Assembly: GCA_900539645.1 (NCBI GenBank)
Contig: UQCY01000043.1
Span: forward strand, 1-13,237
Source of the DNA: an uncultured Clostridium sp.
GTDB taxonomy: Bacteria; Bacillota; Clostridia; Peptostreptococcales; Peptostreptococcaceae
Length of the DNA: 13,237 nt
Direction: 5' to 3'
Below are positions 1,200 to 13,134 of the stretch, one piece after another. Positions within the stretch are counted from its first letter, which is position 1. Every line of letters starts with the position of its first letter. The notes under the pieces were generated by a model. The model was not told where the DNA came from, searched no databases, and worked only from the letters and a program-made list of their open reading frames with translations. The position numbers and the translations under genes are program-made.

Positions 1200-4100
1200 A
1201 TGGCGACACAAAGTGAACAGTTGTTTGTCGAATTAGGCTTGAAAGATTCTAATTTCACATCAGGAATACAGAATGTAAATAGACAGATGAAGATTGTGCA
1301 GCAAGAATTCAAAAATGCTGGGGCAGGTATTAAAAGCTTTGGGACTAGCATAGATGGACTTAAAGCTAAGCAAGCAATGTTAACGCAGTCTATAGAATTA
1401 CAAAAACAGAAAGTTGAGTCTTATAAGAAAACATTCGACGAGTCTTCCAGAAAATTAAAAGAGAATACAAAAGCTCAGCAGGAGCTAACACAGAAAGTTA
1501 ATGCTGCTAAGAGTGCATGGGAACAGTCTAAAAAAGAATTAGGCGAAAATGCTGAGGAAACAAAGCAATTAGGAGCTGAATATAAAAGCTTACAGAAAGA
1601 GCTTAATTCTACTAACTCTAAGATAAGAAGTAATGCTACAGCAGTCCAAAATGCTGAGGCTAATATGAATAAAGCTGAGGCAGAATTAAAACAGATGAAA
1701 GCTGAGCTTAAATCTGTTGGAACAGAAATAGATAATCAGTCTAACAAATGGAAAAAACTTTATAACAATTTAGGCGGATTTGACGCTATAAAAAGTAAAT
1801 TTGCTACTTTAGGAAGTACATTAACTAAAAATGTTACGGTCCCAATAGCAGGAGCTGCTGCAATGGCAGTTAAGACGAACATAGATTTCGAAAATGCATT
1901 TACTGGGGTTGAAAAAACAGTAAATATGTCTGGAGCTGAGCTTGAGAAATTTAAAGATAAGATAGTGGACATGACTAACGAGATGCCACAGACAGTTGAG
2001 GAATTATCTGGAGTAGCCGAAGCAGCAGGACAGTTAGGAATTGAAAATGAAAACTTAGTTGACTTTACTGACACTATGGTTAGACTTGGAGATTCTACAA
2101 ATGTAGCATCTGAAGAAGCTGCATCCGCATTAGCTAAATTTGCTAACATAACGGGAATGAGCCAGACAAGGTTTAGAGATTTAGGTAATGTTATCGTTAA
2201 ACTAGGTAACAACTTCGCTACTACAGAAGCAGATATTATTAATATGAGTACTAGAATAGCTGCTGCTGGTAAACAAGCAGGAATGTCAGAGCCAGAAATT
2301 ATGGGATTCTCTGCTGCATTATCTGCTGTAGGACTAGAAGCAGAAGCAGGTGGTACTGCATTCTCTAAACTGTTAAACGATATGACTCTAGCAGTACAGA
2401 CAGGCTCAAGCGAATTAAATCAATTTGCTAGTGTAGCAGGTATGAGCGCAAGCCAATTCAAGCGGGCATTTGAACAAGACGCAGCAGGAGCCGTTCAGAA
2501 ATTTATCCAGGGATTAGCTGATGCTGAAAAAAATGGTAAATCTGCAGTGCAAATATTGGACGAGATGGGAATAAAAGAAGTCCGTCTAAGAGATGCTTTA
2601 TTAAGAGCTGCAGGGGCTTCAGATACATTCACAAAAGCTGTTAAGATGGGAAATGAAGAATGGGAAAATGGAAGCGCACTGCTAGATGAATCTAATAAAA
2701 AATATCAGACTCTAGGTTCTCAGCTAAAAATAACTAGAAATAAATTAAGAGAGCTAGCAAATGAATTCGGTGAGAGATTAGCTCCAATTGTTAAGAAAGC
2801 AAATGACAAACTAGGAGAGCTTATAGATACTGTATCTAAGCTAGATGATAATACTATAGATAACCTTATAGGATTCGGTGCTGCATTAGCCGCTATAGGA
2901 CCTGCACTTAAAGCAATATCTGCTGGAATGGGTGCTGTGAAAATTATAAAAGAGCTAAAGGCAGCATTCGAAGGTGGAAGCTTATTAGCTGGATTATCTG
3001 CGTTAACTGGATTATCTGGTGTAGCTACAGTTGGATTAGGTGCAGCAGGAGCCGCTGCTGGTTTAGGAATAGGAGCTTTACTAGATAAGAATAAAGATAA
3101 GCTTACAGGATTTACAGATAGAGTTACTAATGCGCATGATCCTAACAGCGACGAACATGTTCGGCAAAGAGAAAAGATGAAAGCTTGGCTAGCTGAACAG
3201 CAACAGATGCTATCTCAAGCTTATTCTCAGTTTGAAAAGAACTGTGATGATTTTATCAAGAAAGCATCTGACAAACTCCAGAAATGGATTCAATCTCAAG
3301 GCAAAAATATAACAGAATTCTTTAAAAATCTACCACAAACAATAGAAGGTGGATTAAAAACTGTAAGCGATAATGTACAAGAATTTTGTTTAAACATAGT
3401 GTCTAAAATTAGCGAAGGCTTTGGTAATATAGTAGCTCCAGTGAAGGACGCATTATCTAAGATTAAGACATCTGTAAGCAATGGATTTAGTAGTGCTAAA
3501 GAAGCAATGTCTAATAAGCTGAGTGAAATGAAGTCGGCTGCTAAACAAGGATTTGAAGGAGTAGTTAATGCTGCTAAACAGATTCCTGGTAAGCTTAAGG
3601 CTGAGGCTATTAAGATGGGACAGAATCTTATAGATGGACTTAAATCTAAAGCTAATGGAGCTAAGCAAGCAATGACTAATATCGGTAATGGAATTAAATC
3701 TGCTGCTAGTAATTTTGTTGGGCAATTAAAAACAGTTGGTAGTCAGATTATACAGGGACTTATTAATGGGATTAAGTCTAAAGCACAGGCAGCAGTTAAT
3801 GCAGCTAAGAATGTAGTTACAAGTGCAATTAACGCAGCTAAGAATGCTTTAGGAATAAATTCTCCTTCTAGGGTATTTATGGAAATTGGGGAATATACTA
3901 GCGAAGGGCTTGCAATAGGGATAAGGAATAAAGCCAACGAACCCGTGAAGGAAATTAAAAAAGTAACTAAGAAAATGCAAGAAGAAATGGAAGCCTTCCT
4001 GAAAAAAAATGAACAACTTGTATCTGATACAAATACTGTATTAGATAAGATTACTACAGCTTTAAAAAATAAATATGAGCAAGCATATGATACAGAAAAA

Positions 4101-4919
4101 TCTGCATTAGACAAACAGTTGAGCGCCCTTGAAGCTTGGAAAGATGCTTCTATAAGTGCTATAAATGCTAGATATGATGCTATGTCTTCGGCTATAGATG
4201 CAGAAATAGCTGCATTAGATAGAGCTTACAGAGAGAAGCAGGAAAAAGAAGAAGATGAGGATATAAATAGCCGAATTAATAATCTTAAAACTGCTATCGA
4301 GTTTGAACATAATGAAGAAAATAAACGGCAAATGCAAAAAGAGCTAGAATCTCTTTATAGAGAAAAAGAAAAGCTAGAAGAGAAGCGACAGTATGAAAGA
4401 GAAAAGCAAGCACTACAAGATAGAAAGCAAGCATTACAAGCCGAAAAAGAAGCTGAAATTGCATCTATACAGAAAAGTTATGAAATGCAGAAATTAGCAT
4501 TAGAAGAACAAATGAAGAAACTGAAAGAATTCTATGATGCTAAATTAAAAGAAGAACGGCTTACAGCTGAGGCAGTTAAAATGATACAAGACAAGAATCA
4601 GAAAGCGATTATTAAATTGCTTAAAGACTACCTTCCAGAGTACCGAAAGGCTGGGCATAATATGGGGGAAAGTCTTGTAGCTGGAATGAAGCCACATATA
4701 GATTCTCTTAAGTCTATGATAGCTGGAATTTTGGCTGATATTAATAATGCTAAACGGCAAGCTAACGCATTACAAGCCCAGCAAGCACGGGGTAAAAGAA
4801 GTGTAATAACAAACAATAACAATGCTAGAACTGCAAATTATACTATAAATGTTCAAAGCAGTGGTAATAATGTTAGAGATATAGATAGCTTAATGAGAAG
4901 TGTTAAATTTAGCTATTAG
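1200..4919 (+). CDS. tail tape measure protein (TP901 type)
   Basis: The protein has 1239 aa, is encoded by the longest gene here and sets tail length; at about 1.5 angstrom per residue this predicts a tail near 185 nm if the protein is not cleaved. Residues 1-190 are long coiled coil rich in K, E, Q and A. Residues about 195-540 resemble the TP901 tape measure core, with the NIDFENAFTGVEKTV segment near 227 and repeated alanine/glycine helices after it. Two hydrophobic stretches, about 557-582 and 594-630, could be membrane-active during DNA entry. Near 884-900 the GINSPSRVFMEIGEYTSEG motif common in these proteins appears. Residues about 920-1140 are a second, very long coiled coil of E, K, Q, R and A. 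A strong AGGAAAGGAGG site at 1183-1193 precedes the ATG. No peptidase or lysozyme motif was recognised. Confidence 0.95.
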   Translation: MATQSEQLFVELGLKDSNFTSGIQNVNRQMKIVQQEFKNAGAGIKSFGTSIDGLKAKQAMLTQSIELQKQKVESYKKTFDESSRKLKENTKAQQELTQKVNAAKSAWEQSKKELGENAEETKQLGAEYKSLQKELNSTNSKIRSNATAVQNAEANMNKAEAELKQMKAELKSVGTEIDNQSNKWKKLYNNLGGFDAIKSKFATLGSTLTKNVTVPIAGAAAMAVKTNIDFENAFTGVEKTVNMSGAELEKFKDKIVDMTNEMPQTVEELSGVAEAAGQLGIENENLVDFTDTMVRLGDSTNVASEEAASALAKFANITGMSQTRFRDLGNVIVKLGNNFATTEADIINMSTRIAAAGKQAGMSEPEIMGFSAALSAVGLEAEAGGTAFSKLLNDMTLAVQTGSSELNQFASVAGMSASQFKRAFEQDAAGAVQKFIQGLADAEKNGKSAVQILDEMGIKEVRLRDALLRAAGASDTFTKAVKMGNEEWENGSALLDESNKKYQTLGSQLKITRNKLRELANEFGERLAPIVKKANDKLGELIDTVSKLDDNTIDNLIGFGAALAAIGPALKAISAGMGAVKIIKELKAAFEGGSLLAGLSALTGLSGVATVGLGAAGAAAGLGIGALLDKNKDKLTGFTDRVTNAHDPNSDEHVRQREKMKAWLAEQQQMLSQAYSQFEKNCDDFIKKASDKLQKWIQSQGKNITEFFKNLPQTIEGGLKTVSDNVQEFCLNIVSKISEGFGNIVAPVKDALSKIKTSVSNGFSSAKEAMSNKLSEMKSAAKQGFEGVVNAAKQIPGKLKAEAIKMGQNLIDGLKSKANGAKQAMTNIGNGIKSAASNFVGQLKTVGSQIIQGLINGIKSKAQAAVNAAKNVVTSAINAAKNALGINSPSRVFMEIGEYTSEGLAIGIRNKANEPVKEIKKVTKKMQEEMEAFLKKNEQLVSDTNTVLDKITTALKNKYEQAYDTEKSALDKQLSALEAWKDASISAINARYDAMSSAIDAEIAALDRAYREKQEKEEDEDINSRINNLKTAIEFEHNEENKRQMQKELESLYREKEKLEEKRQYEREKQALQDRKQALQAEKEAEIASIQKSYEMQKLALEEQMKKLKEFYDAKLKEERLTAEAVKMIQDKNQKAIIKLLKDYLPEYRKAGHNMGESLVAGMKPHIDSLKSMIAGILADINNAKRQANALQAQQARGKRSVITNNNNARTANYTINVQSSGNNVRDIDSLMRSVKFSY

Positions 4920-4934: not shown

Positions 4935-5801
4935 TTGGAAGAATTAAAAATTAAAGATGCAAAAGGGCAGGCTATTAATATAAGTAAGTCCCGCCCTTAC
5001 TTATTAGAAAAAGTTGAGTCGATTGGATTTGGATCTAATATATCGACTATGAATGGAGCATTCGACGGTGTGAATGTGACGGGACTAAATATTAAAGAAA
5101 AAGTAGTGACTATTCAAGGAAGTATAGTAGGAATAGATAAAAGAAGAATGCAGCAGGAGAGAGCTAGACTAGCAGGATTCCTAAATCCAAACAAGGGCGA
5201 CTTTGAATTTATCTATTCTCTAGATGGACACACAAAAAAGCTTGTTGGAAAAGTGCAGCGGTTAGATTTTAAAGAAGCTGTGTCTAGAATGCAAAAATTC
5301 CAGATACAAGTATTAGCTCCATTCCCGTACTGGTTTGAAGAAATGGAGAGAAGGAAAGAAGTAGCTTTATGGACTAAAGATGCATATTTCCCACTTGTGG
5401 CCACAAAAGAAAATCCTATAATCTTCGGACATCGTGTATCTAATTTAATATGCGATATATACAATGCAGGAGATGTAGAAGTTGGAATGAGAATACAATT
5501 AAAAGCATTAGCTACAGTAGTTAATCCTAGTGTACTTAATATCTACACTCAGGAATTTATAAAAATCATACAGACGCTAGAACGGGGCGATGTGTTAGAA
5601 ATTACTACTCATATGAATAACAAAAGAATAGAGATACACAAAGCTGACGGAACGACTAAGAATGTATTTAACTGGATGACATTAGATTCAGAATTCCTAC
5701 AGCTAGCCGTTGGCAATAATACATTCCGATACGATGCAGAAAGTGGAATCGATAATATAGAAATGACTATTTATCATAATCCAGCAAGTTTGGGGGTGTA
5801 G
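4935..5801 (+). CDS. distal tail protein (Dit-like)
   Basis: The product has 288 aa and probably forms the hexameric ring that joins the tail tube to the tip and serves as the hub for baseplate proteins. The N-terminal 150 residues fit the belt domain of the siphovirus tail protein family: a short strand region, VESIGFGSNI near 30, a central DGVNVTGLNIKEKVVTIQG segment, then RRMQQERARLAGFLNP and a FEFIYSLDGHTKKLVGKVQRLDF stretch. The remainder is beta-rich and may be the galectin-like C-terminal domain. Its place directly after the tape measure is the usual one. Translation starts at TTG (4935), eight bases after an AAAGGAG site (4920-4926), and no better ATG is available nearby. Confidence 0.85.
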   Translation: MEELKIKDAKGQAINISKSRPYLLEKVESIGFGSNISTMNGAFDGVNVTGLNIKEKVVTIQGSIVGIDKRRMQQERARLAGFLNPNKGDFEFIYSLDGHTKKLVGKVQRLDFKEAVSRMQKFQIQVLAPFPYWFEEMERRKEVALWTKDAYFPLVATKENPIIFGHRVSNLICDIYNAGDVEVGMRIQLKALATVVNPSVLNIYTQEFIKIIQTLERGDVLEITTHMNNKRIEIHKADGTTKNVFNWMTLDSEFLQLAVGNNTFRYDAESGIDNIEMTIYHNPASLGV

Positions 5802-5806
5802 CTTAA

Positions 5807-6871
5807 ATGAAATCTATAAGAGTAATAGATAAGGACTTTAATCTAATAGGTGAAGTTGATTGCTTTGACTCTTTTTCTCATACACGCAGATGGAGAGGAA
5901 GCGGAGGATTTGATTTAAGAGTAGAGTTGAACGATATGACAAGGGAATGCTTTAAAAAGGATAATATTATCATATTTGATAAAAATCCAAACTTGGTCGG
6001 AATAGTTGAACATGCTGAAATTGACGGAAACGGACAAGGTGATTTCTTTGCTGTTAGAGGAAAAACTTTATCAGGGCTTTTAGAAAGAAGAGTAATCGTT
6101 CCGGCAAATGCTGAAACGTGGGCTACAGAGCAAGGCAAACAAGAATCAATAGTTAAGAATTTTATAACTAAAAATTGCATAAATCCGACGAACTCTAAAA
6201 GAAAAATAGAGAGATTTGAAGTAGCTCCAGACAAAGGACGAGGTAAAGATGATAAATGGAGAAGTGCTTATGATGTTCTAGAAGATAAGCTGAACGAGAT
6301 ATGTGAATATAGCGAGTTTGGATATGATGTTAATCTAGATCTTGCAAATAAGAAATTTGTATTCGACATATATGAAGGCAGGGATTTGACTGTTGAACAG
6401 TCTGAATTACCGCCAGTAATCTTCTCTTCACGATTTAATAACATATTAAATCGAAAATACACAGAATCTGTAATGGGTACTTACAATTCCGTTTACGCAG
6501 GCACAAAAGAAGAAGTCGGAAAAATGGTGCTAAATTATGGAGAAACAGAAATAGGTATAGCTAGAAGAGAATCTTTTTTATCTGTATCTGAAGATACGAC
6601 AGAAGCAATTAAGAAAGAAGCGGATAACTTCTTGGAAGAAAATAGAGAAATAAAAACATTCGAGCTTGAAGTCAGTCCTGAGACAAATTTTATCTATGGG
6701 AGAGATTATAAGCTTGGAGATTTAGTAACCATAGAAGATAGAAAATTGAAAGTAACTATGAATTCTAGAATTATAGAAGTAGTAGAAAATTATACAGGGA
6801 ATCAGAGGAGCTTAACAATAACCTTCGATAAATTGATTCCGAATCTTTTAAATAAGCTTAGAAAATTATAA
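5807..6871 (+). CDS. tail hub / tail-associated protein (Gp37-like)
   Basis: This 354-aa protein occupies the slot after the distal tail protein that normally encodes the tail-associated hub capping the tube. The N-terminal region (VIDKDFNLIGEVDCFDSF, then RRWRGSGGFDL near 27-37) matches the pattern of the siphovirus ReqiPepy6 Gp37-like family. Later come a helical segment (YDVLEDKLNEICEY near 160) and a beta-rich C-terminus containing YKLGDLVTIEDRKLKV. The gene is shorter than hub genes that carry a C-terminal peptidase or lysozyme domain, and no such catalytic motif is visible. A G-rich site (GGGGGTG, 5792-5798) overlaps the end of the upstream gene eight bases before the ATG, suggesting translational coupling. 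Confidence 0.78.
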   Translation: MKSIRVIDKDFNLIGEVDCFDSFSHTRRWRGSGGFDLRVELNDMTRECFKKDNIIIFDKNPNLVGIVEHAEIDGNGQGDFFAVRGKTLSGLLERRVIVPANAETWATEQGKQESIVKNFITKNCINPTNSKRKIERFEVAPDKGRGKDDKWRSAYDVLEDKLNEICEYSEFGYDVNLDLANKKFVFDIYEGRDLTVEQSELPPVIFSSRFNNILNRKYTESVMGTYNSVYAGTKEEVGKMVLNYGETEIGIARRESFLSVSEDTTEAIKKEADNFLEENREIKTFELEVSPETNFIYGRDYKLGDLVTIEDRKLKVTMNSRIIEVVENYTGNQRSLTITFDKLIPNLLNKLRKL

Positions 6872-6889: not shown

Positions 6890-7981
6890 ATGTTAAAATT
6901 TAGCTTTTTTGATTCGATTATAGGAGCTGATGGACAGCCTGATAGAGCATTCGGAGCTGGAGATTTTAGCAAATATTTCGGAACACTTATAAAAAATGGA
7001 ATATTCCCTAATCCATCTAGTAACTTCCAGATAATGGGCGACCAAAACAACATGACTGTGAAAGCTGAGCCTGGTCTAGCTTGGATTGAGGGACACTTAG
7101 GATATGACGATAGTGTTTATATACTTAATATAGATAAAGCAGATTCTAGCATGGATAGAATAGACAGAATCGTGCTTAGATTAGATACATTAGAACGCTG
7201 TATAAAATGGGTAGTTAAGAAGGGAGAATTCTCCGTCAATCCTACTCCAAAGCCTATTCAGAGGGACGCTGATGGATATGAGATAGCTATAGCCGATGTA
7301 CTAATTGCTAAAGGTGTATCTAAAATAACTCAGTCGGCGATTACAGACTTGAGAATGAATACAGAGCTATGTGGATGGGTGACAGGTACAGTTACACAAA
7401 TAGATACTACAACTCTTTTTAATCAGTTGGAGCAATGGAAGACAGAATACATAGAATCAACAAATACATGGACTACAGAGCAAGAGCAGGCATTCCTAAA
7501 TTGGAAACAACTATTTGAAACAGCAGCTACAGATTGGAGAGCTGGAGAGGAGCAGAAATTCCAAGCGTGGCTTGAGTCTATAAAAGGAAAACTAAGTGGA
7601 GATGTTGCTGGGAATCTACAGAATCAGATTGAAGAATTAAAAGAAAAAGATGTAACTACAGATGGAGAAATAGCAAAAATAAAAAATGATATAACTACTG
7701 TTAGTAATCGTGTAACTAAAATAGAAGAAGCTAAAACACAAGTAGAACTAACTATCGAACGGGCGAAATGGTCAGGGAATAAATATTCTTTAGAAAATAA
7801 GTATCCGTTTTCACAGTACGATATTTATATACTAGACTACGGGGCTAATGCTACAGAAGCTGAAATATTCGCTTGGGGCGATGCTATGGTAAAAGGATCT
7901 ATGACAGAGAATGTATTAACTGCAGTAGGTACAAAGCCAACTATAGACGTGCATGTAGTTGTAGAGGTGGTGAGAAAATGA
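6890..7981 (+). CDS. upper baseplate / minor structural protein
   Basis: This 363-aa structural protein probably connects the hub to the receptor-binding proteins. The N-terminal 150 residues contain the FFDSIIGADGQPDRAFGAGDFSKYF opening and the MDRIDRIVLRLDTLERCI segment near 88-104, often seen in baseplate proteins of Gram-positive siphoviruses. Residues about 165-285 are helical and probably coiled coil. The last 70 residues (AKWSGNKYSLENKYPFSQYDIYI, then the GTKPTIDVHVVVEV ending) form a small beta domain found at the C-terminus of many such proteins. An AAAGGAG site lies seven bases before the ATG. The stop codon overlaps the next start in ATGA (7978-7981), so the next gene is translationally coupled. 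The exact role is inferred from position. Confidence 0.72.
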   Translation: MLKFSFFDSIIGADGQPDRAFGAGDFSKYFGTLIKNGIFPNPSSNFQIMGDQNNMTVKAEPGLAWIEGHLGYDDSVYILNIDKADSSMDRIDRIVLRLDTLERCIKWVVKKGEFSVNPTPKPIQRDADGYEIAIADVLIAKGVSKITQSAITDLRMNTELCGWVTGTVTQIDTTTLFNQLEQWKTEYIESTNTWTTEQEQAFLNWKQLFETAATDWRAGEEQKFQAWLESIKGKLSGDVAGNLQNQIEELKEKDVTTDGEIAKIKNDITTVSNRVTKIEEAKTQVELTIERAKWSGNKYSLENKYPFSQYDIYILDYGANATEAEIFAWGDAMVKGSMTENVLTAVGTKPTIDVHVVVEVVRK

Positions 7982-8928
7982 TATTTAATAAAGTAAGTGG
8001 TGGAGCAGAAAAAGTAACGATAGATGGAAAGCCAGCAAGGGAAAAGCTAGACTTAATAAAAACTTTACAATTTTTATATAATCAACAGAATAAATTTCCA
8101 AAACCTAATTATAATGATAGTATGGACACTAATTATTTAAAATTAAGTACTAATGAAAGTGTATTCTTTGTAAATGGAATATTTGGAAACGCTAATGTAT
8201 ATAGAGGTGGCATAAAGAAAGGATGGACACTATTAGGTAATATAAACCATATGGGAGGAAGTAATAGTGATAATAAAAATAATTATTATTATTTAGATAA
8301 AAATGATTGTATATACTACATAGAAAACAGCACGCTACTAAAAAGAAATTTGATAGATTTTACAGAAACGATTGTTTCACCTACGATAAGTGTAGTTGGA
8401 AGCAAAGCAACAATGTGTATTCCTTTTAACGATTATGTATTTGTAATGTCTGGGAAAGACTATATGTACAAGATAAAAAATAATATAGTAACAGATATAA
8501 CATTGAAAGTTGTTAATTCTGGATTCCCATTCTACAGTCTTCCTGTTGGTGTAATTAAAAAAGATGGTTATTTGTATTTAGTTAAAGATGCTGATATTTT
8601 TAAAACAAAAGATTTGGAAACTTGGAATGCCACAGTTTCTAAAAATGGGTATTATAATATGAATGGTTCAGTTTTATTTACTGTTAAAGATAATACATAC
8701 CTAGCAGCAAAAAATAATGTATCAGACGATGAAACTAATTTTAAAGTTTACAAATTTGAAAATGATGATTATACAGAAGTTGGTTTAATAAAGGCAGATT
8801 TAAATAATTCGTTTAAAAATGGGCTTCTTTTTTTATATCCAGAAGACGACAGAAAATTTTATGCATGGACAAGTGATAGAAAAGCAATACTTCTAAATGA
8901 TGAAATATACAAAGAAAGAGAGGTATAA
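7978..8928 (+). CDS. probable receptor-binding tail tip protein 1
   Basis: The start is placed at ATG 7978, which overlaps the upstream stop and follows AGAGGTGGTGAG. The frame is open further upstream (to 7873), but that part only overlaps the baseplate gene. The protein has 316 aa and opens with NKVSGGAEKVTIDG (residues 4-17), a motif shared with the next gene and likely the part that docks on the baseplate. The rest is rich in aromatic residues, asparagine and lysine in repeated short strands such as YYYLDKNDCIYYIEN, YVFVMSGKDYMYKI and GYLYLVKDADIF. These resemble blades of a beta-propeller (kelch-like) and suggest ligand binding. The DNA is much poorer in GC than the upstream tail genes. 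Function is inferred from position, fold impression and the paralogue; no family was recognised with certainty. Confidence 0.68.
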   Translation: MIFNKVSGGAEKVTIDGKPAREKLDLIKTLQFLYNQQNKFPKPNYNDSMDTNYLKLSTNESVFFVNGIFGNANVYRGGIKKGWTLLGNINHMGGSNSDNKNNYYYLDKNDCIYYIENSTLLKRNLIDFTETIVSPTISVVGSKATMCIPFNDYVFVMSGKDYMYKIKNNIVTDITLKVVNSGFPFYSLPVGVIKKDGYLYLVKDADIFKTKDLETWNATVSKNGYYNMNGSVLFTVKDNTYLAAKNNVSDDETNFKVYKFENDDYTEVGLIKADLNNSFKNGLLFLYPEDDRKFYAWTSDRKAILLNDEIYKEREV

Positions 8929-8930
8929 AA

Positions 8931-9847
8931 ATGGCTGTTTATAATAGAATCGGGGGGGGTCAAGTCGAATTTTAATTGACGGAATCCTTCAACGAGGCGA
9001 ACATAGTTTTGAAAAAAAAGAAATAATAAATAAAAATTTAGCTAATCCATTTCCAATCTCAGCAAACTTGTTAAAGCCTTGGAGGCACACAAGAGATGCG
9101 GATAAAGGAATAGATTATTTCTTTTATTCAAACAAACTTTATTTTGGAAGTTTAGAAAAAGGATTTACAGAAAAAAATATTCCAAATATAGAGGCATTAA
9201 ACGAAACTGAATTTTTAATGACGTATTTAAAAGATGAAGTTTACTTTTTAGAAAAGGACTATTTTTATAAATGTAATATAAAAACTAATCTTATTACACA
9301 ACTTGGTAAAAATGGAAGTAAGCCCTATTCTGGCGGGAAAAAATGTATATTATATCCATTAAATGATAATTTATATTTAATACAGCATGAACCTTGGGGA
9401 AATGGTGGATTTTATTTTTATCAATACAATACAAAAAATGACACTTGGACAGAATTAAATAGACCCGAATATCCTTATCCTACAGATGAAAGATTGTATT
9501 TTTTAATTAATAATTTATGTTATATCTTATACACAAATAAAAGTAATTATCAATTTGATTTTTTTAAAACATCAAATGGCACCACTTATACAGAAGTAGA
9601 AAAAAAAGAAAATAATATTAATATAAATTGTTTATTTAAATACAAAAATAATGTGTATGCAATAGATAATAATGCTCTTTATAAATTTAATACCGATACT
9701 GAAATATTTGAAAAATATAAAGAGTTAGGTGATTTTAAAATACAAAATAGTCCAGATTTCTTTTATATAGAAAATAATAGACTCTATATAAAAAATGCAA
9801 ATAATAACATAATGACAAATGAATTATATTATAAAAAAATAAAATAA
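8931..9847 (+). CDS. probable receptor-binding tail tip protein 2, out of frame at a poly-G tract
   Basis: The ATG at 8931 has a GAGAGG site at 8918-8923 and opens MAVYNRIGGG. As written, the frame ends after 14 codons (TAA 8973-8975). The -1 frame is open from the eight-G tract (8952-8959) to 9847. Nine G, or a -1 slip at G GGG GGT (8954-8960), gives a 305-aa protein starting MAVYNRIGGGSSRILIDG. That lines up without gaps with residues 4-17 of the upstream protein: N, G, G, I, D and G are identical and K/R and V/I are conservative. The body is again a series of short aromatic strands (YFFYSNKLYFGSLEKG, DEVYFLEKDYFYKC, NNVYAIDNNALYKFN), like propeller blades. The only late start is TTG 9068, which has no ribosome binding site. 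It may be phase-variable (off in this copy), read by slippage, or a sequencing error in a homopolymer. Confidence 0.72.
8952..8959 (+). repeat. poly-G tract (G8) in the N-terminal codons of a tail tip gene
   Basis: This is a run of eight G, from an ATC codon to GGGGGGGG and then TCAAG, in a region that is otherwise very AT-rich. It falls at codons 8-10 of the second tip-protein gene and throws the frame off by one. The paralogous gene encodes the same glycines as GGT GGA. Homopolymeric G tracts of this length are classic sites of slipped-strand mispairing and of transcriptional or ribosomal slippage. Confidence 0.85.
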
Positions 9848-10793: not shown

Positions 10794-11420
10794 ATGTATT
10801 TCAACAAAGATAATATAGCTGAAATAGCTAATGTGACAGCAGATGAATTAGAATATGCTGTTAACTCTCTAAAGGCTGAGAATGGCTTACAGGGGCTAGG
10901 AGTATGCTTCATAGAAGCTGAGGAAAAATATAATATAAATGCTATAGTCTTAACTGCTATAGCTTGCCTTGAAAGTGCTTACGGGACTTCTAAATTAGCT
11001 ACAGAAAAAAATAATCTATTCGGACTAGGAGCTAATGACGAATATAAAGGTGACGCTAACAAATACGGCGGATACTTCTCTACTAAAGAAGACTGTGTAG
11101 ATTATGCTGCTAAGAAATTAAGAAGACAGTACTTAGAAAAAGATCCTGCTGCTAAGTGGTGCTATTGTGGAGGAGCAACTGATATATATGCTATTGGTAA
11201 TATATGGTGTAGCAATCCAGAATGGGCGGACTGCATCGTGGATTTATCTTGTAGGCTATCTAAAGCAATAGATGAAGAAAGAGATAGCCATGTTGATTGG
11301 AAATCTAAATGTCTAAGAGCTGAAGAAAAGCTGAATAAAATAAGAGATATAGTCAATGATATAGATGTAGCATCTTATAGTGTTAATGAGGAAGAAATGG
11401 AGGTACCCAGTTATGAATAA
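10794..11420 (+). CDS. glucosaminidase-type cell wall hydrolase
   Basis: This 208-aa enzyme probably cleaves the beta-1,4 bond after N-acetylglucosamine in peptidoglycan. Residues about 20-150 match the FlgJ/LytD-type glucosaminidase domain: TAIACLESAYGTSKLA contains the likely catalytic Glu60, followed by NNLFGLGA, GGYFSTKEDCVDYAAK and YAIGNIWCSNPEWADCI. The final 50 residues are a charged helix with no recognised wall-binding repeat. There is no signal peptide, so it depends on the holin for export or acts from the virion. AAGGAG (10780-10785) lies eight bases before the ATG. The gene overlaps the holin gene by eight bases. Together with the amidase it gives the phage two activities, cutting both glycan chain and peptide link. 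Confidence 0.87.
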   Translation: MYFNKDNIAEIANVTADELEYAVNSLKAENGLQGLGVCFIEAEEKYNINAIVLTAIACLESAYGTSKLATEKNNLFGLGANDEYKGDANKYGGYFSTKEDCVDYAAKKLRRQYLEKDPAAKWCYCGGATDIYAIGNIWCSNPEWADCIVDLSCRLSKAIDEERDSHVDWKSKCLRAEEKLNKIRDIVNDIDVASYSVNEEEMEVPSYE

Positions 11421-11646
11421 GGAAAGATTTAAAAATGTATGGATGTGGTTAGGGCTAGTAGGTGTAGCAGGAGCTGCTGCAGGGATAGATGCTACTACAC
11501 TTACTAGTTGGGATTTACTTTTTAAAAGTGTAATGGAAGTTATAAAAAATCCATACCTTTTAGGCTGTACAGTATTAGCTGTATTAGGTGTAGTTACAGA
11601 TCCTACAACAAAAGGCCTATTGGATAATAAGAAGGTGAGAAAGTAA
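11413..11646 (+). CDS. holin (phiLC3 family)
   Basis: The small membrane protein opens the cytoplasmic membrane at a set time so that the wall hydrolases reach peptidoglycan. I place the start at ATG 11413, eight bases after GGAGGT (11399-11404), giving 77 aa. The frame is open to an ATG at 11380, but that codon has no ribosome binding site. Features of the phiLC3 family are visible: the MNKERFKNVWMWLGLVG opening, the first membrane segment (about 9-25), the TTLTSWDLLF turn, NPYLLGCTVLAVLGVV as second membrane segment (about 46-61) and the family signature TDPTTKGLLDN (62-72). The basic C-terminus KKVRK is typical. The gene overlaps the glucosaminidase by eight bases and the amidase by one. 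Confidence 0.92.
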   Translation: MNKERFKNVWMWLGLVGVAGAAAGIDATTLTSWDLLFKSVMEVIKNPYLLGCTVLAVLGVVTDPTTKGLLDNKKVRK

Positions 11647-12356
11647 TGCATATACTAGATTATAAAAGACGTATAAAGTGCTATGCAGGGCAGAATAAGC
11701 CGAAATACATTGTAATCCATGAGACAGACAACACTGCTAAAGGAGCAGGGGCTAAGAAGCATGGAGAGGCACATAAGAATGGAAATCTATCTACTTCCGT
11801 TCATTATTATGTGGATGATACATATATAGTCCAAACGCTAGACCATAGGGACGGCTCATATTCTGTCGGAACTAAATACGGGACTCCGCTTGTAGCTGGA
11901 GTAACTAACAGAAATACTATTAATATAGAGATATGTGTTAATCCAGAGTCGAATTACGAAAAAGCTAGACTTAAATGTGTAGAGCTAGTTAAGTACTTAA
12001 TGAAGCAGACAGGCATTCCCGCTGATCGTGTGATTCGTCATTACGACGCTAAGAGAAAGCACTGTCCACGCAAAATGCTAGATAATCCCAAATTGTGGGA
12101 TGATTTTCAAAAAAGAATAAGAAGCAATGCTCCATCGGAAGGAGGTGAAAAAGACGTGAAGGTAATGGTTACATATTTTGGAGATGCAGACCTTCCTGCT
12201 GCTGTTATAGTAGCTCAGAAAAATAAGGCTCCATTAATGCGAGTATCTGACTTTAAAGAGCAGGGAATAAAAGCTGATAAGGTAATCCAGATAGGAGGGA
12301 AAGCCGAAGATAAAAACAGATTTGAAACTTTTAAAAACGCAGCGAAGTTGCTGTAA
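11646..12356 (+). CDS. N-acetylmuramoyl-L-alanine amidase endolysin
   Basis: This 236-aa endolysin cleaves the bond between N-acetylmuramic acid and L-alanine of peptidoglycan. Residues about 15-160 form an Amidase_2 (T7 lysozyme-like) domain. The zinc ligands are His25 (YIVIHETDN), His132 (VIRHYDAKRKHCP) and Cys140, with the same eight-residue gap between second and third ligand as in T7 lysozyme; Glu95 lies in NIEICVN. Residues about 171-236 (VKVMVTYFGDADLPAAVIVAQ, then KADKVIQIGG) resemble the C-terminal domain of the clostridial endolysins CTP1L and CD27L. There is no signal peptide, so it needs the holin. The ATG overlaps the holin stop (TAATG). An internal ribosome binding site and GTG precede the C-terminal domain. 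Confidence 0.93.
   Translation: MHILDYKRRIKCYAGQNKPKYIVIHETDNTAKGAGAKKHGEAHKNGNLSTSVHYYVDDTYIVQTLDHRDGSYSVGTKYGTPLVAGVTNRNTINIEICVNPESNYEKARLKCVELVKYLMKQTGIPADRVIRHYDAKRKHCPRKMLDNPKLWDDFQKRIRSNAPSEGGEKDVKVMVTYFGDADLPAAVIVAQKNKAPLMRVSDFKEQGIKADKVIQIGGKAEDKNRFETFKNAAKLL
12156..12356 (+). CDS. secondary translation product: endolysin C-terminal domain alone
   Basis: Inside the amidase gene a near-perfect Shine-Dalgarno, GGAAGGAGGTGA (12137-12148), is followed seven bases later by an in-frame GTG at 12156 (codon 171). Translation from it would give 66 aa, starting KVMVTYFGDADLP after the initiator, which is exactly the C-terminal domain. CD27L and CTP1L make such a separate C-terminal product from an internal start, and it joins the full-length enzyme and affects its activity. 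The CTP1L domain begins in the same way with a VENLVVYNDGADQ-type strand and contains a similar VYAVGG turn, matching VIQIGG here. The site also encodes EGGEKD in the full-length protein. Confidence 0.7.
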   Translation: MKVMVTYFGDADLPAAVIVAQKNKAPLMRVSDFKEQGIKADKVIQIGGKAEDKNRFETFKNAAKLL

Positions 12357-12609: not shown

Positions 12610-13134
12610 ATGAAAAAGAAAAGTCTATTATTATTAGCTGCAGTAGCATTAGTAGGAATGTTAGCAGTTGGATGTGGTAAAGAGGAAGCTAAAGAGCCAG
12701 AAAAAGTTATTCCAGAAACAGTAGAAGATATAACAGCAGCATACAAAGAAGCTAATCCAGCTGTTACAGACAGTATTATTTTTACAGAAGAAAATGATCC
12801 TAACGAAGCATTAGGAAGACCTAATCAGTACATAGGTAAAGCCGACCTGTCTATAGAAGGTGTGGAAGAGATTAATGATGACAAGGCTCAGGGGCTTAGT
12901 GGTGGAACAATAGAAACATTTGCGAATGAAAAAGATTGTGATGCTAGAGCTGAATATTTAAAAGCTTTTATGGATCCAGCAATGGGAGCTTTTGGTGTAG
13001 ACCAGTACACTTATAAATACAAAAAGATGATATTTAGAATATCTCATTCTGTCACTCCAGAAAATGCAGCTAAATATAAAGAGCTAATGGATGGAATTCT
13101 GGAACAGACTGGAGAAGAAATAGTATTTGAATAG
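12610..13134 (+). CDS. predicted lipoprotein of unknown function
   Basis: The 174-aa product has a lipoprotein signal: KKK, a hydrophobic core (LLLLAAVALVGMLAVG) and Cys22 in the lipobox-like AVGC. After lipidation it would sit on the outer face of the membrane. A charged linker (KEEAKEPEKVIPETVED) leads to a domain of about 130 residues containing EENDPNEALGRPNQYIGKADLSIEG near 60-84 and a C-terminal YKKMIFRISHSVTPENAAKYKELMDGIL. I have the impression of a small secreted domain seen in other Firmicutes lipoproteins but cannot name its function. It has its own promoter and terminator, so it is independent of the late operon. It may be a cargo gene expressed in the lysogen, for instance altering the host surface, or the first chromosomal gene beside a prophage. 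Confidence 0.85.
   Translation: MKKKSLLLLAAVALVGMLAVGCGKEEAKEPEKVIPETVEDITAAYKEANPAVTDSIIFTEENDPNEALGRPNQYIGKADLSIEGVEEINDDKAQGLSGGTIETFANEKDCDARAEYLKAFMDPAMGAFGVDQYTYKYKKMIFRISHSVTPENAAKYKELMDGILEQTGEEIVFE

What the first reader, a model, noticed from the sequence alone, without database searches (positions are those of the whole stretch)
8931..9847. Poly-G switch in a phage receptor-binding protein gene
Seen: a run of eight G at codons 8-10 of an otherwise very AT-rich gene puts the remaining 297 codons out of frame. Nine G restores a 305-aa protein, and its residues 5-18 then align without a gap with residues 4-17 of the neighbouring tip protein. Known: G homopolymers mutate by slipped-strand mispairing and drive phase variation of surface proteins. 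Inference: the phage switches one of its two host-binding proteins on and off, a way of hedging between host surface types that does not need an invertase or reverse transcriptase.
Basis: partly seen in the sequence, partly recalled or inferred. Interest (0 to 1): 0.86.

Follow-up and report, generated by a model that had tools for sequence, protein, structure and literature searches.

The report
Likely poly-G switch in phage tip
A phage gene that probably makes one of two host-gripping tail-tip proteins is knocked out of frame by a run of eight Gs, most likely a slippery on/off switch of a kind already known in Campylobacter phages, although no read data were available to prove that it switches.

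Summary
Eight G (8952-8959) at codons 8-10 put the rest of the gene out of frame, while the next frame (8960-9847, 295 codons) is open. Two natural relatives are full-length (305 aa, 93%; 306 aa, 79%); a third (259 aa, 76%) starts at the same internal TTG as the window's downstream ORF, perhaps another out-of-frame copy. The gene is a diverged paralogue of its intact neighbour at the end of a tail module and models weakly as a propeller. Poly-G runs recur in tip genes with an unrelated domain (DUF6273): in one Clostridia MAG its only two G8 runs lie in two such genes, in frame; two related genomes have a G10 in a tip gene, out of frame. Against: those two genes carry a second break; 26 other cassettes had no G8 run; tract variation in a population could not be tested. 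Phase variation of a tail-tip protein is the best reading (0.55); a fresh null mutation or an assembly error is not excluded. The mechanism is known from Campylobacter phages; this would be a new member in a Bacillota-type siphophage module.

The parts
8920..8933 (+). ribosome-binding site (GAGG 8920-8923) and ATG start of the broken tip gene
   Evidence: read directly in the sequence
8952..8959 (+). G8 homopolymer at codons 8-10; point where the frame is lost
8960..9847 (+). open downstream frame (295 codons + stop) of tip gene 2, probable receptor-binding tail-tip protein, Kelch-like propeller by a weak model
7978..8928 (+). tip gene 1: intact full-length paralogue (316 aa); its anchor Gly-Gly is written GGT GGA, without a tract
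6890..7981 (+). PHROG 1220-type protein upstream of the tip genes (labelled 'head protein' in PHROGs, 'receptor binding protein' in some phage records); BppU-like by position, from recall
5807..6871 (+). PHROG 538 / Sipho_Gp37-like minor tail protein
4935..5801 (+). distal tail protein (PHROG 33, 36410)
1200..4919 (+). tail length tape measure protein

Best explanation
The gene at 8931-9847 is the second of two paralogous tail-tip (probable receptor-binding) genes of a siphophage or prophage, probably of a Bacillota host. The eight-G run in the codons of its N-terminal anchor changes length by slipped-strand mispairing during replication, so the protein is made only when the tract keeps the frame. 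The copy sequenced here is in the OFF state, while the paralogue at 7978-8928, whose anchor is written without a tract, would always be made. Phage progeny would thus be a mixture with one or two kinds of tip. Shown: the tract, the broken frame, the intact frame behind it, full-length natural relatives, the paralogue, and recurrence of poly-G in comparable tip genes. Inferred: slippage, reversibility, receptor binding, benefit.
For: Only one lesion: the downstream frame is gapless against three natural relatives and ends at the same residues. Full-length relatives at 93% and 79% (P0001, P0002), and a 76% relative whose predicted start is the same internal TTG (P0003), as expected if that copy is also out of frame. 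The paralogue encodes the same anchor motif with GGT GGA. In L018 (PHROG 1220 gene upstream) two of three tip genes have an in-frame G8 at codons 11-14 (DUF6273 was scanned and met in the first two genes; the third runs off the contig and is placed by its match to the second). These are the only two G8 runs held for that 1.7-Mb genome; synonymous recoding gave such a run in 1 of 20,000 trials for each. Of the three other genomes with relatives of that tip gene (E <= 1e-30, 292 genomes searched), G748 and G772 have two tracts of eight or more G each, one of the two being a G10 in a tip gene and out of frame; G721 has none. L371 (G748) has the window's order TMP, Dit, PHROG 538, PHROG 1220, then the tip gene with the tract. 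In 37 loci with relatives of the PHROG 1220 gene, the three runs of eight or more G/C lie in the 5 kb from that gene onward (144,218 bp; two in L018, one in L019) and none elsewhere (403,756 bp), binomial p = 0.018, with the 5-kb limit chosen after seeing the runs and two of three in one locus. Precedent: Fletchervirus RBPs.
Against: No read data or second isolate: tract variation is not observed. The G10 tip genes of G772 and G748 each have a second frame break further on, as in decaying genes. In 26 cassettes found by the PHROG 1220 gene without regard to G runs there was no G8 run (six have less than 5 kb downstream, and at least three are contigs by their lengths), so the tract is not a regular part of this module. 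5' G8 runs in IMG/VR showed no visible majority of tail genes (80 of 120 places measured, 25 loci read by eye). Against P0001 only about two stops would be expected under neutrality, so their absence is weak evidence (P 0.13-0.18). An A8 run in the same gene is in frame, so homopolymers are not special to the break. Eight G is short for fast slippage in a host with mismatch repair (recalled, not tested).
Confidence: 0.55

Rival explanations
1. Fixed loss of function: the tract slipped once, recently, and tip gene 2 is now a young pseudogene; the tract matters only as a mutation hotspot.
For: Against the 93% relative the lack of stops is not significant. Comparable out-of-frame tip genes in G772 and G748, and a tract-less tip gene in G721, carry other frame breaks, so tip genes of this kind do decay (or are misassembled).
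Against: No second lesion in 295 codons here. P0003 also looks out of frame only at its start, with no gap or stop over 259 residues; for its 61 differences the neutral expectation is about 5-6 stops, P 0.003-0.009, though this counts both branches and the relative was found as an open protein.
Confidence: 0.23
2. Assembly or sequencing error: the real tract keeps the frame and the gene is simply intact.
For: Homopolymers are where sequencers miscount (recalled); the source and read type of the window are unknown, and no genome is held.
Against: Eight G is within the range short reads usually count correctly (recalled). P0003 may be an independent out-of-frame copy. The two G8 tracts of L018 are called in frame.
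Confidence: 0.16
3. Productive slippage: ribosomes shift by -1 on the G run (or RNA polymerase slips), so the full-length protein is made from this DNA at some level.
For: The needed shift is in the direction of classical -1 frameshifting, and a G run lets tRNAs re-pair (sequence; mechanism recalled).
Against: No stimulatory structure: fold z-score 0.13, 108 of 200 shuffles fold at least as well. P0001 and P0002 are predicted as single open frames and the L018 genes are in frame in DNA, so they need no shift.
Confidence: 0.06

Closest known systems
Poly-G phase-variable receptor-binding proteins of Campylobacter Fletchervirus phages (Sorensen et al. 2021, Cell Rep 35:109214; not held; known here from passages in PMC8713573, PMC10877375, PMC11868660)
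   Same: Phage receptor-binding proteins whose expression is phase-variable through G homopolymers; several RBPs per phage of which only some are phase-variable (two of up to four).
   Different: Different phage type (siphophage tail module with PHROG 538/1220 genes), probably Bacillota host, a probable propeller, and switching not demonstrated here.
DUF6273 tail-tip genes with poly-G in Clostridia MAGs (L018/G001, L370/G772, L371/G748)
   Same: Tip genes of phage tail cassettes (behind a PHROG 1220 gene in L018 and L371); the tract falls in N-terminal glycine codons in L018 and L370.
   Different: Unrelated C-terminal domain; tract in frame in L018, out of frame in L370 and L371, further into the gene (about codon 46) in L371.
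Diversity-generating retroelements and tail-fibre invertases (recalled)
   Same: Ways for a phage to vary its host-binding protein.
   Different: They mutate or swap the binding domain; here only presence or absence would change. I did not search the window for a DGR or an invertible segment.

Membership tests
Simple-sequence phase-variable (contingency) gene | Homopolymer of about seven or more G in the reading frame near the 5' end | tested here: met
   G8 at codons 8-10
Simple-sequence phase-variable (contingency) gene | Frame behind the tract intact and conserved | tested here: met
   295 open codons, gapless to three relatives
Simple-sequence phase-variable (contingency) gene | Both in-frame and out-of-frame alleles occur in nature | tested here: inconclusive
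   Window is out of frame; P0001 and P0002 are full-length; P0003 appears out of frame by its predicted start; the DNA of none of the three was seen
Simple-sequence phase-variable (contingency) gene | Tract length varies within one population at high rate | not testable with these tools
   No reads; no genome held
Phage receptor-binding protein | Encoded at the end of the tail module behind Dit and the later baseplate genes | tested here: met
   Order TMP, Dit, PHROG 538, PHROG 1220, tip 1, tip 2
Phage receptor-binding protein | Sequence or fold of a known RBP | tested here: inconclusive
   Piece 9068-9844: no Pfam match and only phrog_8443 (tail fiber protein) at E 0.087; P0002: phrog_12615 at 0.0015 and Kelch_6 at 0.03, below its cut-off; P0001: none; no PDB sequence match; weak model, pLDDT 55, pTM 0.52, Kelch-type PDB matches from 2e-6 with TM about 0.3-0.48
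Fletchervirus RBP2 family | Homology to Fletchervirus RBP2 | tested here: inconclusive
   tblastn of the downstream frame against 50,697 phage records gave no match at E 0.01; RBP2 was not compared directly and I did not check that such phages are in that collection

The most novel reading that the evidence does not exclude
Poly-G switching of tail-tip proteins is a convergent strategy in Bacillota phages: the tract is placed in the glycines of the N-terminal anchor, so that any exchangeable binding domain (propeller here, DUF6273 elsewhere) can be plugged behind the same switch while a tract-free paralogue stays constant.
Probability: 0.3. Interest if true: 0.7.

Novelty: new member of a known kind. 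Interest (0 to 1): 0.5.

Why it matters
If it switches, poly-G phase variation of phage adhesins is not peculiar to Campylobacter phages, but also used by phages of gut-type Bacillota. Host-range predictions from single assembled genomes would then mislead for such phages, and metagenome reads could test this directly.

Tried and rejected
Close DNA relatives were sought and not found: viral contigs by protein and by exact start sequence, phage records by DNA and protein, genome contigs by alignment A1. The viral-contig search with the PHROG 1220 protein gave one weak place (35 residues), not used. The host was not identified: 249 genomes of one order gave only the centre itself at E 1e-50.

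A pattern for L018-type anchors gave 18 places with no tip gene that I could recognise, and occurs in 1 of 292 genomes of that family, G001 itself. A G8-to-I-D-G pattern (80 of 120 places examined, the 44 with 40 or more open codons printed) gave no tip gene that I could recognise.

A regular tract in PHROG 1220 cassettes was rejected: 0 G8 runs in 26 places. Programmed -1 frameshifting found no structural support. L019 (Lysinibacillus), where the PHROG 1220 gene itself ends at a G8 run, was kept as a side observation.

Full report
What is there. The window is the tail and lysis end of a siphophage-type genome or prophage: tape measure (1200-4919), distal tail protein (4935-5801), PHROG 538 / Sipho_Gp37 protein (5807-6871), a PHROG 1220 protein (6890-7981), two tip genes (7978-8928 and 8931-9847), small genes, a Glucosaminidase-domain protein (10794-11420) and an Amidase_2 protein (11646-12356). 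The second tip gene has a start codon with a ribosome-binding site, then eight G at 8952-8959, after which the start frame stops within five codons, while the frame from 8960 is open for 295 codons. The G run is the only one of six or more in the window. A and T runs of eight also occur, one A8 in this gene.

Relatives. A search of 5.8 billion proteins with the downstream frame alone gave three natural relatives: P0001 (305 aa, 93%, N-terminus MAVYNRIGGG), P0002 (306 aa, 79%, full-length) and P0003 (259 aa, 76%), which begins at the position of the window's first possible internal start, a TTG. P0003 is therefore probably a second out-of-frame copy, but its DNA could not be read. The three align without a gap over the compared residues and share the C-terminus. 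Intact copies thus exist in nature.

What the protein is. Profile comparison shows that tip 2 and tip 1 are homologous over nearly their whole length (hhalign E 4.6e-8, 279 columns). An AlphaFold model from a shallow alignment of 10 sequences is weak (pLDDT 55, pTM 0.52) and mostly strands, and Foldseek matches Kelch-type propellers in the PDB and in viral models. No Pfam or solved-structure sequence match was found for the window's piece; P0002 has a Kelch_6 match below its cut-off. Position and paralogy make a receptor-binding or tail-tip adhesin likely; this is inference. The host is not known; 36 of the 37 genome contigs with relatives of the PHROG 1220 gene bear names that I recognise as Bacillota and one is a Bacteroidetes MAG.

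Is the tract more than chance? In the window taken alone it is moderately unusual: the N-terminal peptide gives a G8 run in 1.4% of recodings with the window's codon usage. The neighbour writes the same anchor as GGT GGA. The stronger argument comes from other tail modules. L018, a contig of a Clostridia MAG (isolate name Lapin), has a PHROG 1220 gene followed by three tip genes related to each other (DUF6273 was scanned and met in the first two). Two have an in-frame G8 at codons 11-14, and these are the only two G8 runs on either strand of the 1.7-Mb genome as held. Recoding gave each in 1 of 20,000 trials. Searching 292 genomes of that family with one of these proteins found relatives at E 1e-30 in 4 genomes including itself. 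G748 and G772 each have two tracts of eight or more G, of which one is a G10 in a tip gene and out of frame; of the other two, one lies in a glycosyltransferase-like gene in frame (by eye) and one was not assigned; G721 has none. In G748 the order is TMP, Dit, PHROG 538, PHROG 1220, tip gene with tract, as in the window. In G772, behind baseplate and tail-fibre-like genes of another type, the tract sits at the N-terminal glycines, as in the window.

Results against. Both G10 genes have a further frame break downstream, so they may be decaying or misassembled; a tip gene of G721, without a tract, is also broken. The tract is rare: among 391 genomes of the class, 23 had a PHROG 1220-type gene (alignment A4, E 1e-20) at 27 places; 26 of the 27 (L018's own left out) were fetched and none has a G8 run in 369,740 bases, cassette or elsewhere. 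In those 37 loci three runs of eight or more lay in the 5 kb from the PHROG 1220 gene onward (two in L018, one in L019) and none elsewhere, p = 0.018; the 5-kb limit was set after the runs had been seen. In IMG/VR, 5' G8 runs showed no visible majority of tail genes. In the class sample 33 of 391 genomes had the 5' pattern; of the 30 loci read by eye, the only tip genes that I recognised were those of L018's genome, and a few look like host phase-variable genes.

Most likely working. The run lengthens or shortens by slippage when the DNA is copied; the second tip protein appears only when the frame is kept; the first is constant. A like design is reported for Fletchervirus, which encodes up to four RBPs, two of them phase-variably expressed; RBP2 serves when the receptor of RBP1 is absent (introduction of PMC8713573, passages read). 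A review says that simple-sequence switching of a phage receptor-binding protein was demonstrated (PMC11868660, passages read). The original paper was not held. Every step after the frame analysis is inference here.

Literature. Six text searches listed, by titles and beginnings of abstracts, no paper on poly-G switching of phage tail genes outside Campylobacter phages; most subscription papers are not in that library, so this is weak evidence of novelty.

Verdict. What would be new is the host group, the tail module and possibly the convergent use of the anchor glycines.

Noticed in passing
L252, L259, L264, L269, L282, L286, L293, L302, L304, L308, L313 (IMG/VR): A phage methyltransferase-like gene (motifs around HPEWHI and WDLIIAHPPCT, name recalled) has a mid-gene run of 8-10 G; in 7 of these 11 loci the longest upstream frame is not the downstream frame. 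Could be another phase-variable phage gene, or chance in GC-rich sequence. The loci were found because they have the run, and L264 and L269 look alike.
   Followed up: partly
L019:10961-10968 and L235: Lysinibacillus: the PHROG 1220 gene runs out of its likely continuing frame at a G8 run near its C-terminus; another genome of the genus has a similar stretch (about 78 columns) open in one frame with a different tract length.
   Followed up: partly
L200, L201, L203 (Clostridia-class genomes): Acyltransferase-like membrane protein genes (by eye, name recalled) with 5' runs of 9-10 G, two in frame and one out of frame: possible host surface phase variation.
   Followed up: no
genome G197, five places (C8, C14, C19, C22, C24): Five gene starts with nearly the same beginning followed by 8-11 G in one genome; the one read (L181) is out of frame with 500 open codons behind it.
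   Followed up: no
L371 about 4750-4772 and L372 about 5573-5604: Tip genes of two genomes lose frame at a similar place in the DUF6273-type part, not at a G tract of eight: shared decay or something programmed.
   Followed up: no
L079 11474-12585 (minus strand): Three small adjacent genes beginning M(A)IFN with glycine runs; one has an in-frame G8, the next an out-of-frame G9; no family match for these two.
   Followed up: partly
window 12610-13134: Predicted lipoprotein (by eye) of 174 aa after the lysis-type genes, DUF4969 match below its cut-off: possible lysogenic-conversion gene.
   Followed up: no
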